Part shown: positions 41,356-44,578 of the stretch, piece by piece
Layout of the letters: every line of letters begins with the position of its first letter
Position numbering within the stretch: position 1 is the first letter of the stretch
Assembly (NCBI RefSeq): GCF_022370755.2
Contig: NZ_CP092364.2
Span: 868,001 to 932,000 of the forward strand
DNA: 64,000 nt
Direction of reading: 5' to 3'
DNA from: Mycolicibacterium goodii
GTDB lineage: Bacteria; Actinomycetota; Actinomycetes; Mycobacteriales; Mycobacteriaceae
Notes under the pieces: generated by a model
The model's input: the letters and a program-made list of their open reading frames with translations, nothing else
What the model was told of the DNA's origin: nothing
The model's database searches: none
Made by a program: the position numbers and the translations under genes

Positions 41356-42204
41356 GTGTTCGTGGCCGCTTGGAAAAACGCGCCGAAACAGGGGCCTGAG
41401 CGCGGTGTCGTGGGCCGCCCGGCCAGTACGTCGGCGTTCGACCTCACCCGCTGGGCGCCCTCGCCCGAGGCGGGCCGTTTCGTCGAGCACTACTGGTCGG
41501 TGAGCTGGGACCGTCGCGCCGACGGCCCCTTCGAGAGCACCGTGATCACCTTCCCGGCCGTGCATCTCACCCGCGAGTGGGGCGATGACGTTGCGCGCCA
41601 CGGCTGCCCGCTGCCCAACACGCTGCTGCACGGTGTGGTGACCCAGGTCTTCCGCACCACCATCAGCGCTCGCGGCACGGTGGTCGGGGCACGGTTCCGT
41701 CCGGGCGGGTTCACCGCGCGGTTCGGTCGTGACGCCGGGGATCTGACCGGTCGTGTGGTGCCGGTGGATGACGACTTGTTCGGTGGGCCAATCGATCTCG
41801 GACAGGACGTCGACGGGGTCCGGGCACGGCTCGACGCGGCCATCGGGGCCTACCGCGGACCTGTCGATGCTGTCTATGCCCGCTTGGTGCCCCTGCTTGA
41901 GCGCATGCGCGACGACCCCACACTGCATCGCGTCGAGCAGGTGATGGAGCATTCGCCGTGGAGTGTGCGCACGACGCAGCGGGTGTTCCGGCGGTATGTG
42001 GGAGTGCCGGTGAAGTGGGTGCTGTGCCGGTATCGCCTGCAGCAGGCGGCATTGGAGATCGAGAGCGCCGGCAGTGTGGATTTCGCCGATCTCGCGGTGC
42101 GTCTGGGGTGGTATGACCAGGCGCACTTCATCAATGACTTCCGCGGCATGTTGGGCTGCACACCGGGGGAGTACGCAATGCGGTTCGGTCAGAAGGGTGG
42201 TTAG
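41356..42204 (+). CDS. AraC-family transcriptional regulator
   Basis: A 282-residue regulator. The N-terminal half (STSAFDLTRWAPSPEAGRFV, EHYWSVSWDRR, GARFRPGGFTARFG) is the AraC-associated domain common in actinobacteria. The C-terminal double HTH spans VEQVMEHSPWSVRTTQRVFR to LAVRLGWYDQAHFINDFRG, ending CTPGEYAMRFGQKGG. Its final 83 bp is repeated exactly 888 bp downstream, where the same frame continues to GGGS and a stop at 43098. This implies that the original gene ended there and that an insertion has rebuilt a slightly shorter end. GTG 41356 or 41362 may start it. Target unknown. Confidence 0.88.
   Translation: MFVAAWKNAPKQGPERGVVGRPASTSAFDLTRWAPSPEAGRFVEHYWSVSWDRRADGPFESTVITFPAVHLTREWGDDVARHGCPLPNTLLHGVVTQVFRTTISARGTVVGARFRPGGFTARFGRDAGDLTGRVVPVDDDLFGGPIDLGQDVDGVRARLDAAIGAYRGPVDAVYARLVPLLERMRDDPTLHRVEQVMEHSPWSVRTTQRVFRRYVGVPVKWVLCRYRLQQAALEIESAGSVDFADLAVRLGWYDQAHFINDFRGMLGCTPGEYAMRFGQKGG
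42118..42200 (+). repeat. 83-bp direct repeat, left copy (inside the AraC gene end)
   Basis: This 83-bp segment, from CAGGCGCACTTC to CAGAAGGGTGG, is identical to 43006-43088. It encodes the last 27 codons of the AraC protein. The two copies flank a lower-GC inserted gene, so they mark the edges of an insertion that duplicated the end of its target gene. Confidence 0.95.
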
Positions 42205-42206
42205 CC

Positions 42207-42965
42207 CTATGACTCACTGTCGTCGTCTGTCGATCGACCTGACTCGAAGCGCCAGATAGCATGATCAAGAGCAATCACGTCGTATCCCTCGGCATTTGCC
42301 GCCTCTTTTACAAGGGTTGCCGCTTTTTGCTCGGTGAGATGCGATTCGGCCGTGCCGATTGCCGACGCAACGTACCGTTTGATCATCCGGTCGGGCTTCA
42401 CACCCGAACTGTTGCCGTCGTCTGACACAGCGCGCGCGAGCATGAGGAAGTAGCTCCATGAGATTCCCGAGCGTTGACCGGGCACGCGGGTCCAATCGGA
42501 CTTGATCGCAGGGAGACGGCCTTCATCACCAGCTTTGCGGAGGTCGCGGACGGACCAAACCCCATGGTCGGCGAGTGCATGAGTTTCGCGCAGAACTGCC
42601 TCGGCTTTGAGGATGCCGTTCTGGGTTGACGTGCGTTGCCGGTTGCCGAATTTCGCTGCCCAACCGTCGGGACCACCGAGATGTTGGAAAGTGCCCATCA
42701 GTTCCAGACCGCCATCTGCATCGGCGTTCCCAGACTGGCCCAATCGGTACCGCCTATATCGGTTCACCAGGCTGACGACACCTTGGTACCTCACCCCGAT
42801 CGAAAAGACCGAGTCGACTATGCACAGAGCAAGGCTCGCTGGGTAGCCGTCTGGAGTGGACCACAGGCCAGGATCACCGAGATCCCGATCGATGGCATCC
42901 ACCAATGCCGTCAGCTCGTTACCGGTAAAACCAGCGGCCATGAATATCCCCGATCCGCTCGCCAT
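42207..42965 (-). CDS. HhH-GPD-like protein of unknown function, carried on the insertion
   Basis: A 252-residue protein, the only gene between the two 83-bp repeats. Family-like stretches: ALCIVDSVFSIGVRYQGVVS (about 46-65), the Lys-rich helix NRQRTSTQNGILKAEAVL, VPGQRSGISWSYFLMLARAV (161-180), VKPDRMIKRYVASAIG and ALDHAIWRFESG (232-243). The PGQ-SGISW-YFLML / VKPD-RYV arrangement resembles the helix-hairpin-helix core of base-excision glycosylases, but a catalytic Lys/Asp pair cannot be assigned. GC is clearly lower than around it (one hand-counted line, 42241-42300, is 32 of 60). Starts at 42965 or 42941 both have purine-rich leaders. It probably acts on DNA; a repair or defence role is speculation. 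Confidence 0.7.
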   Translation of the reverse strand: MASGSGIFMAAGFTGNELTALVDAIDRDLGDPGLWSTPDGYPASLALCIVDSVFSIGVRYQGVVSLVNRYRRYRLGQSGNADADGGLELMGTFQHLGGPDGWAAKFGNRQRTSTQNGILKAEAVLRETHALADHGVWSVRDLRKAGDEGRLPAIKSDWTRVPGQRSGISWSYFLMLARAVSDDGNSSGVKPDRMIKRYVASAIGTAESHLTEQKAATLVKEAANAEGYDVIALDHAIWRFESGRSTDDDSES

Positions 42966-43005
42966 GAGTGTCCTGCAGCGAGTACACCATTTGCGGCTGA
43001 CAATT

Positions 43006-43088
43006 CAGGCGCACTTCATCAATGACTTCCGCGGCATGTTGGGCTGCACACCGGGGGAGTACGCAATGCGGTTCGGTCAGAAGGGTGG
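43006..43088 (+). repeat. 83-bp direct repeat, right copy (original AraC gene end)
   Basis: Identical to 42118-42200. Read on the plus strand it continues in frame to GGGS and a stop at 43098, most likely the ancestral end of the AraC gene now cut off from its body. The last 12 bp overlap the 3' end of the convergent HNH gene. Confidence 0.95.
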
Positions 43089-44504
43089 GGGTTCGTAGTT
43101 GTCGGCGAGCCAGGCTTGGTGTTGGCGTTGTTGTTCGGCGTTGAGTTCGGCGCGTTCGCGGCGTTCGGCGTTGATGCGGTCGGCGCGGTCTTGTTCGCGG
43201 GTTTGACGGCGTTTGGGCATCATCACCCCGCGGTTGGGGTGGGGCTCGTCTTGCTGGGGTGGCAGGTTCAGGTCGCCGGTGGGGGTGCCCAGGATCGGAA
43301 ACAGGGCCGCGCCTTGGGGTTCGGTGGTGTAGACGTGCCCGGTGGGGGCGGTGAACTCGATGGTGCCGTCGGGCAGTTGCCGATCGGTCCAGCCGCGCGG
43401 GCCGGTGTAGAAGGTTTTGATCAGGTGGTGCGTACGGCAGTACAGCTTGGTGTTCGACGGATGCGTGGGGCCTTGCGGGTAGGGGCGGGTGTGGTCGATG
43501 TCGGCGGCCATCGCGGGCGCGTCGCACCCAGGGAAGCGGCAGGTCAGATCGCGCCACCGGATGAATTCGGCGAGTTCGACATTGGGCCGGTAACCCGATT
43601 GGGCTTTGTCTTCGGGGAGGGTGACGGGTTTGGTGGTGGCAGTCTTGGCGACCTCGCGCACCATGTGCGCCGGCAGCATTCCGAACCCGGGCAGGTACCC
43701 CGGCTCGCACCCGCCCTCGAGCGTGGATTTCTCGGCGAGCACGTGGATCATCGCGTTGTTCACTGCTGCACGCTCGGCGACCGCGGTGCAGTCCTCGCGT
43801 CCGCACTGGCAGCCCAGGGTGTCGCGGTAGCGGCCCAGCGCGCCGAGGGCATCGGCGCGGCGCTGATCGGGGGTGCGGGGATCGTTGGCGCATACGGTGT
43901 CGGCGATGGCGTCGAGGCGTTTGTCGAACCCGGCGGCGTCGTGGGCCGGCAGGTAGCCCTGGGCGTTGGCCATGCCGGGAGTGCTGGCGGGTTGGACCTC
44001 GAAGTATCGGCTCTCTTCGGATCTCTTGGTGACGCGTTGGCCGTCGGGATCCAAGCGCAGGATGCACTGGTCGATGCGTTCTTGGAGTTTGGGGTTCGAC
44101 AGGCGCATCCAGCCGGGTGAGCGGCGGGCCAGCACATCGTCGAGTGCGGGCATGGCGGCGGAGTCGACGAGTTCGGTGCGGGTGGCGATCTTGGTGACGA
44201 TGCGAAAGTCGATGTCGCCTGTGGCGAACACTGCGGCGACCTTGGGGATCCGGTCCCGCAGCACCCGCGCCAGGTGGACCTGCCAGCCGGCGCGGGAGCG
44301 GGAGATCCGCAGCGCCGCGGACACCTCGGCGCAGACCTCCTCGAACGGGTCGGTGCGCCAGAAGATGGAATCGGCCAGTTCGATGGTGCGGCGCGTGTCC
44401 AACTCGGCGATCGCGCGCAGGCGGACGGCGATCGCGGTGTTCTCCTGCCGCTTGGCCTCGGTGATGGCGTCGATCAGACCCGCATCACTCGCTCCATCGA
44501 ACAT
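43077..44504 (-). CDS. DUF222/HNH endonuclease-domain protein (13E12 repeat family)
   Basis: A 475-residue protein of the family found in several copies in mycobacterial genomes (REP13E12 in M. tuberculosis). The DUF222 part covers about 20-300 (AELDTRRTIELADSIFWRTD, RISRSRAGWQVHLARVLRDR); the C-terminal HNH nuclease motif is CRFPGCDAPAMAADIDHTRP then THPSNTKLYCRTHHLIKTF. A charged Arg/Glu/Gln-rich tail ends it. MFDGASDAGLIDAI at 44504 is the typical family start; the frame opens 30 bp earlier. Function unknown; linked to mobile or repetitive DNA. Its stop overlaps the right 83-bp repeat. Confidence 0.85.
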   Translation of the reverse strand: MFDGASDAGLIDAITEAKRQENTAIAVRLRAIAELDTRRTIELADSIFWRTDPFEEVCAEVSAALRISRSRAGWQVHLARVLRDRIPKVAAVFATGDIDFRIVTKIATRTELVDSAAMPALDDVLARRSPGWMRLSNPKLQERIDQCILRLDPDGQRVTKRSEESRYFEVQPASTPGMANAQGYLPAHDAAGFDKRLDAIADTVCANDPRTPDQRRADALGALGRYRDTLGCQCGREDCTAVAERAAVNNAMIHVLAEKSTLEGGCEPGYLPGFGMLPAHMVREVAKTATTKPVTLPEDKAQSGYRPNVELAEFIRWRDLTCRFPGCDAPAMAADIDHTRPYPQGPTHPSNTKLYCRTHHLIKTFYTGPRGWTDRQLPDGTIEFTAPTGHVYTTEPQGAALFPILGTPTGDLNLPPQQDEPHPNRGVMMPKRRQTREQDRADRINAERRERAELNAEQQRQHQAWLADNYEPPPF

Positions 44505-44578
44505 GTGTTCGAGTATGCCACGACCCACCGACAAGTCAGAATGTCCTGATAGGACTGTTCGGGAACTCGGGCGAGGAT

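What the first reader, a model, noticed from the sequence alone, without database searches (positions are those of the whole stretch)
42118..43098. 83-bp perfect direct repeat around a one-gene insertion that rebuilds the end of its target gene
42118-42200 equals 43006-43088 base for base. The right copy continues in the AraC frame to a stop at 43098, so it is the ancestral gene end; the left copy restores a nearly full AraC protein after insertion of 888 bp. The cargo is a single gene of lower GC with no recombinase. 83 bp is too long for an ordinary transposon target duplication; carrying a copy of the target's 3' end is how integrative islands protect host genes. This may be a minimal, non-autonomous integrating cargo.
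Basis: partly seen in the sequence, partly recalled or inferred. Interest (0 to 1): 0.75.

Follow-up and report, generated by a model that had tools for sequence, protein, structure and literature searches.

The report
Single-gene insertion flanked by 83-bp duplication
A lone foreign gene, probably for an enzyme that cuts bases out of DNA, has recently slipped between two neighbouring genes of a mycobacterium while an 83-base stretch of the target was copied, so both neighbours kept their ends; it is a clean case of a rarely described way in which single genes move.

Summary
42118-42200 and 43006-43088 are identical, the only exact direct repeat of 20 bp or more in the window. A sister genome (87-90% identical DNA here) holds the empty site with one copy: an 805-bp insertion (42201-43005) with a clean 83-bp target duplication. 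The duplicated stretch is the 3' end of an AraC-type gene plus the last 12 bp of a convergent DUF222 gene, so both stay essentially intact. Both copies share all 5 differences from the sister, so the copy was made from this lineage's own DNA.

The cargo is one low-GC gene whose predicted fold and motif spacing fit HhH-GPD DNA glycosylases; 'heme peroxidase' is probably a misnomer. Relatives are scattered on chromosomes, plasmids and jumbo phages, some beside restriction-modification genes. No other locus examined shows a comparable duplication, so a copied host gene end is no trait of the family. I found no recombinase, no terminal inverted repeat, no IS1634-family transposase.

Best fit: 'insertion with long target duplication', known for restriction-modification genes, here probably end-joining capture across offset breaks.

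The parts
42118..42200 (+). Left copy of the 83-bp duplication; forms the 3' end of the AraC-type gene
   Evidence: Exact repeat; aligns without a break to the left flank in sister G424
43006..43088 (+). Right copy of the 83-bp duplication; holds the ancestral AraC 3' end and the last 12 bp (43077-43088) of the convergent DUF222 gene
   Evidence: Exact repeat; aligns without a break to the right flank in G424
42201..43005 (.). Inserted DNA, 805 bp, GC 0.586, no terminal inverted repeats
   Evidence: Absent from G424, where the two flanking blocks overlap by exactly 83 bp; composition and end comparison
42207..42965 (-). Cargo gene, 252 codons; likely true start at the second Met (42941); HhH-GPD DNA-glycosylase-like protein, named 'heme peroxidase' in some records of relatives
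   Evidence: ORF; homologs and names; start by alignment; model and fold comparison; motif spacing
41356..42204 (+). AraC-type regulator gene (DUF6597 + HTH_18), 3' end now supplied by the left copy
   Evidence: Pfam; homologs in 33 of 198 genomes at E <= 1e-60
43089..43098 (+). Last 10 bp of the ancestral AraC reading frame, now cut off from the gene
   Evidence: Sequence; same end in G424
43077..44534 (-). Convergent DUF222 gene; its 3' end lies in the right copy
   Evidence: Pfam PF02720, E 2.3e-89

Best explanation
Recent insertion of a single foreign gene with a long target duplication. Shown: the junction of two convergent, overlapping genes (AraC-type and DUF222) received 805 bp of unrelated low-GC DNA carrying one glycosylase-like gene, and 83 bp of target now stand on both sides. 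Inferred mechanism: the chromosome was opened with ends offset by 83 bp (two opposite-strand nicks with fill-in, or breaks at different points of two sister copies), and a linear foreign fragment was joined in by Ku-type end joining. The duplication is a by-product; the insertion survived because it left both neighbours with working ends. The repeats should now allow loss or tandem amplification of the gene by recombination (inferred).
For: Exact empty site in G424 with a single 83-bp copy and flanks that abut it on both sides; the same convergent pair without insert in L027, L028, L029 and L035. The copies are identical and share all 5 differences from G424, as a locally made duplication would. 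Low GC and GC3 of the cargo. No recombinase in the insert, no terminal inverted repeats (285 of 300 shuffles reach the observed score), no IS1634-family transposase in the genome. Ku is encoded in the genome (LigD was not looked for). Long repeat of this kind found once in 850 kb, fitting an accident rather than a recurrent site-specific process. The pattern matches insertion with long target duplication as described in papers seen in passages.
Against: No direct trace of end joining; the joints show no clear microhomology. A fragment that holds almost exactly one whole gene (6 bp beyond the stop, 40 bp before the first ATG) is a lucky cut unless selection chose it. Gene conversion could have evened the copies and hidden an imported, diverged copy. 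Ku is common in mycobacteria (recalled), so its presence discriminates little.
Confidence: 0.5

Rival explanations
1. A minimal, non-autonomous integrative element: a site-specific recombinase supplied in trans integrated a small circle at the 3' end of the araC gene, and the 83 bp are attL and attR.
For: Target is the 3' end of a gene and the gene is rebuilt, as with many integrative islands (recalled). One distant family member, L173, lies between a tRNA-Pro gene and a 37-bp partial copy of its end, about 2.3 kb apart. In L099 a serine resolvase gene stands directly upstream of a homolog.
Against: Both copies share the lineage's own differences from G424, unlike an imported att copy from another species. 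No other of 396 genomes showed the cargo DNA at this site or a second adjacent copy of the 83 bp (at most 2 candidates scored per genome). No inverted-repeat core beyond 6 bp in the 83 bp. No integrase remnant in the insert. The 104-aa ORF in L173 that looks by eye like a recombinase end has no Pfam hit.
Confidence: 0.2
2. A transposase that makes long, variable target duplications (IS1549/IS1634 type, one of them from M. smegmatis) moved the gene as a passenger in trans.
For: IS1549 and IS1634 insertions carry repeats of 8-514 bp (PMC2266710, passages), so a single transposase class can produce 83 bp.
Against: The insert has no terminal inverted repeats, and the genome has no IS1634-family transposase (0 of 1; the same model rang in 5 of 14 control genomes).
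Confidence: 0.1
3. Homologous (Campbell-type) entry: the cassette formed earlier in another strain of the species, left as an 888-bp circle through its repeats, and entered this chromosome by recombination at the 83 bp.
For: Long perfect repeats permit such loss and gain; identical copies fit a conspecific source. The cargo protein's cluster counts 4 member sequences on 3 contigs, so other copies exist, though perhaps of the same strain.
Against: Does not explain how the cassette first formed; no strain-level data are held here.
Confidence: 0.12
4. Two steps: a tandem duplication of the gene end first, then a separate insertion of the cargo at the joint between the two copies.
For: Short shared words at the joints (TATGAC just before the left copy and again 7 bp inside the insert; TGAC near the right joint; read by eye, no statistics) could be traces of an older joint.
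Against: Needs two events at one spot while the copies are still identical. No bare tandem duplication was seen in the relatives inspected.
Confidence: 0.08

Closest known systems
Insertion with long target duplication (Nobusato et al. 2000; Furuta et al. 2010), described for restriction-modification genes, first in Helicobacter pylori
   Same: Genes without mobility functions inserted between long direct copies of the target, recognised by comparison with a relative holding the empty site (PMC3031569, PMC1643837, PMC4978471, PMC3154945, passages). Some relatives of the cargo lie beside restriction-modification genes.
   Different: Cargo is a single glycosylase-like gene, not a restriction-modification system; the host is an actinobacterium. 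The two founding papers were not read (Furuta not held; Nobusato not looked up).
IS1549 / IS1634-family insertion sequences
   Same: Long, variable target duplications of 8-514 bp, one element from M. smegmatis (PMC2266710, passages).
   Different: No transposase, no terminal inverted repeats in the insert; no family transposase in the genome.
Integrative islands that rebuild the 3' end of their target gene
   Same: Insertion at a gene's 3' end with a repeat that restores the gene.
   Different: No integrase; the repeat is the lineage's own sequence rather than a diverged imported copy.
HhH-GPD DNA glycosylases (MagIII, Mag1, OGG1, endonuclease III)
   Different: No detectable sequence-profile match to this genome's Nth; the catalytic Lys position of Nth is Gly or Ala in 40 of 40; activity unknown.
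Brig1 and Brig3 anti-phage DNA glycosylases
   Same: Small DNA glycosylase genes that act in defence (PMC11078745 passages, PMC13160076 abstract and passages).
   Different: Brig1 and Brig3 belong to the uracil-DNA-glycosylase superfamily; the cargo's predicted fold is HhH-GPD. Any defence role here is a guess.

Membership tests
Insertion with long target duplication | Insert absent from a close relative that keeps one copy of the repeat | tested here: met
   G424 has the single copy and no insert
Insertion with long target duplication | Long direct target duplication (tens of bp or more) on both sides | tested here: met
   83 of 83 bases identical, each copy continuous with its native flank
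Insertion with long target duplication | No mobility gene in the insert | tested here: met
   One long ORF only, with no recombinase or transposase family hit
Insertion with long target duplication | Cargo is a restriction-modification system (the described cases) | tested here: not met
   Glycosylase-like protein; no PADLOC hit. So it works like those cases but with another cargo.
IS1634/IS1549-family element or passenger | Terminal inverted repeats | tested here: not met
   Best end-to-end match score 5, reached by 285 of 300 shuffles
IS1634/IS1549-family element or passenger | Family transposase available in the genome | tested here: not met
   0 of 1 genome; control genomes rang in 5 of 14
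Site-specific integrative element | Integrase gene or remnant in the element | tested here: not met
   No such ORF in 805 bp
Site-specific integrative element | Same attachment site used elsewhere | tested here: inconclusive
   No second adjacent copy seen in 396 genomes, but at most 2 candidates per genome were scored
HhH-GPD DNA glycosylase superfamily (cargo) | HhH-GPD fold | tested here: met
HhH-GPD DNA glycosylase superfamily (cargo) | Conserved Asp at the hairpin spacing of Nth | tested here: met
   Asp in 37 of 40 members; spacing 23 as in Nth in 25 of 40, 30 to 58 in the other 15, the cargo with 30. That this Asp is catalytic is recalled.
HhH-GPD DNA glycosylase superfamily (cargo) | Base-excision activity | not testable with these tools
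   Needs an enzyme assay

The most novel reading that the evidence does not exclude
The glycosylase drives its own spread: it makes abasic sites on both strands of a target, AP endonuclease turns them into offset nicks, and the long staggered break is filled in and sealed around a fragment carrying the gene. On this reading insertion with long target duplication is a general route for solitary DNA-attacking genes (restriction enzymes, glycosylases), not a peculiarity of restriction-modification systems.
Probability: 0.05. Interest if true: 0.85.

Novelty: new member of a known kind. Interest (0 to 1): 0.42.

Why it matters
How single genes without mobility functions enter chromosomes is mostly unobserved. 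A young insertion with an exact empty site, both joints readable and no recombinase is a good test object for end-joining capture versus hidden site-specific recombination. It would widen a pattern tied to restriction-modification genes to another probable DNA-attacking enzyme, and it corrects a probably misnamed protein family with possible defence roles.

Tried and rejected
Chance repeat: rejected. Assembly fault: unlikely; single-contig genome, and the cargo's protein cluster counts 4 member sequences on 3 contigs, though their independence is unknown. Transposon ends: none. IS1634-family transposase in the genome: 0 of 1.

Long duplications around the cargo family: of 88 loci (flanks up to 4 kb, best repeat per locus, 20 best printed, some loci are different genes of one contig), repeats scoring over 30 were L158 (246-bp block on a contig with three homologs), the window, G156/L105 (52 bp, imperfect and palindrome-like) and L173 (37 bp, tRNA end); the next scored 18. 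A further 24 loci with 1.5-kb flanks gave none over 14 (L289 mis-placed by a contig end). An earlier scan of 19 loci for exact repeats of 12 bp or more gave 26 bp in L017 and 16 bp or less elsewhere, window apart.

Insertions of other homologs: G080 has one, 1,294 bp against 85 bp in G011, without direct repeats. G039, L129 and L138 gave no clean empty site. tRNA association: 5 of 69 loci in 817,504 bases, about what typical tRNA numbers (recalled) would give. Constant partner gene: 102 nearest neighbours (90-700 aa) of 69 loci, three of these without a called cargo ORF; 87 Pfam families at E <= 1e-4, the commonest in 3 of 102, the first 25 shown. Sequence match of the cargo family to solved structures: none meaningful, best E 0.058 to a designed protein. 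Profile match to Nth: none (the second protein compared there was read on the wrong strand and is void). My first motif count missed rows and was redone. Literature: searches were listings from which nothing was used.
Full report
THE OBSERVATION. The 83-bp repeat is real and exact: 42118-42200 and 43006-43088, 888 bp apart. No other exact direct repeat of 20 bp or more exists in the window, and no inverted one. In 850,000 bases of the same chromosome, window included, it is the only exact direct repeat of 40 bp or more with copies over 200 bp apart, within the limits of that scan. The left copy ends the AraC-type gene (41356-42204); the right copy continues in the same frame to 43098. The right copy also covers the last 12 bp of a convergent DUF222 gene (43077-44534, Pfam E 2.3e-89). 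In the ancestor the two genes overlapped by 22 bp, and the duplicated stretch reaches into that overlap, so both remain essentially whole; AraC is two residues shorter.

THE EMPTY SITE. Genome G424, found by a DNA search of 396 genomes of the genus, carries the 83 bp once at 94% identity and gave no match to the cargo part. Its locus L092 aligns with the window at 89.9% up to 42200 and at 86.6% from 43006 on, and the two blocks overlap by exactly 83 bp in G424. More distant relatives (L027, L028, L029, L035) have the same convergent araC-DUF222 pair with no insert; in others a different gene follows araC. The event is therefore an insertion of 805 bp (42201-43005) with an 83-bp target duplication in the window's lineage. 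Both copies differ from G424 at the same 5 sites and from each other at none. If the copies were as old as the split, at 6% difference the chance of 83 matches would be about 0.006 (my arithmetic), so the insertion is younger, unless gene conversion evened the copies. The shared differences also show that the copy was made from this lineage's own DNA (or a conspecific's), not imported from another species.

THE INSERT. It holds one long ORF of 252 codons on the minus strand, with 6 bp beyond its stop and 40 bp before its first ATG. GC is 0.586; GC3 of the gene is 0.636 against 0.81-0.91 in the eight neighbours compared. The second Met (42941) is nearly invariant among 40 aligned homologs and is the likelier start. 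The insert ends have no inverted repeat beyond chance (285 of 300 shuffles reach the score). No recombinase is encoded in it. The genome has no IS1634-family transposase and does have Ku.

DISTRIBUTION. Homologs occur in 18 of 198 genomes at E <= 0.001 and 49 of 396 genus genomes at E <= 1e-30, own genome counted in both. They occur in 31 plasmid records, 6 phage records, and in 116 confirmed stretches of named genomes of which 80 were kept. A subgroup sits at a conserved locus: 15 loci share neighbours in my clustering, some being two cuts of one genome and one (L181) probably a chance inclusion. It includes a second, 44% identical copy in the window's own genome. The rest are scattered. In G080 the homolog is a single-gene insertion too (1,294 bp against 85 bp in G011) but without direct repeats. 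Restriction-modification genes lie nearby in L101 (type IIG, plus a DrmD-like helicase) and L141 (type I) by PADLOC and in L143, L153 and L187 (type I) by Pfam. I chose these loci because they looked like defence genes, so this is no enrichment test. Among 102 nearest neighbours no Pfam family recurs in more than 3.

IS THE DUPLICATION A PROPERTY OF THE FAMILY? No. Among 88 loci and 24 more only the window shows a long exact duplication hugging the gene. L173 lies between a tRNA-Pro gene and a 37-bp partial copy of its end, so at least one distant relative may ride a small island; a 104-aa ORF there looks by eye like the end of a tyrosine recombinase, but Pfam gave no hit.

MECHANISM. Shown: insertion, target duplication, local origin of the copy, no mobility gene. 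Inferred: offset breaks, fill-in and end joining. [quoted passage not shown] 2000 and Furuta et al. 2010 for restriction-modification genes (PMC3031569; PMC1643837; PMC4978471; PMC3154945). I read neither founding paper. Long variable repeats are also known for IS1549 of M. smegmatis and IS1634 (8-514 bp; PMC2266710, passages), but the insert lacks that family's features. Of the 19 papers that hold the phrase 'long target duplication', none has a mycobacterium in its title (listing only); that is no proof of absence in print.

FUNCTION. Glycosylases of another superfamily (Brig1, Brig3) protect bacteria against phages with modified bases (PMC11078745, passages; PMC13160076, abstract and passages). 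A similar role for this family is a guess from its plasmid, phage and restriction-system company; nothing here tests it.

ORGANISM. 

VERDICT. A confirmed, young, single-gene insertion with an 83-bp target duplication; a new example of a known but rarely documented kind of event.

Noticed in passing
L173:4721-7059: A cargo homolog lies between a tRNA-Pro(ggg) gene and a 37-bp partial copy of its 3' end, about 2.3 kb apart, with a 104-aa ORF that looks by eye like a tyrosine-recombinase end (no Pfam hit): a possible mini-island.
   Followed up: partly
L101:8146-16829: A cargo homolog directly follows a type IIG restriction-modification gene and a DrmD-like helicase gene (PADLOC), as if part of one defence operon.
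   Followed up: partly
L153:3809-6675: A cargo homolog starts at the end of a type I restriction R-subunit gene (overlapping ORF calls), downstream of methylase and specificity genes.
   Followed up: partly
L170:5758-8094: The homolog is part of a 779-aa ORF with about 500 further residues and no Pfam or PADLOC hit; similar long ORFs in L151, L171, L177, L179 and L182.
   Followed up: partly
L160:4736-5917 and L172:4704-5885: Two neighbours of cargo homologs, by position probably these two, match AlkZ-like DNA glycosylases (PF06224, 2 of 102 neighbours): two different glycosylase genes side by side.
   Followed up: no
G024:C144, L011 and L022: Two parts of a cargo-like gene (residues 37-94 and 91-242) lie about 6.4 kb apart in the same orientation; a 14-bp repeat with a palindrome brackets the second part.
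   Followed up: no
L149, L158, L159 (one Brevibacterium aurantiacum contig): Three homologs on one 23-kb contig, with repeated flanking DNA.
   Followed up: no
window 43077-44534: The neighbouring DUF222 gene ends in an HNH-like stretch (by eye); DUF222-type genes also stand beside cargo homologs in L096, L121 and L128. Such genes are common (recalled), so this may be chance.
   Followed up: no
G000:C1:756295 and 756403 (outside the window): A 70-bp exact direct repeat with copies 108 bp apart in the same chromosome.
   Followed up: no
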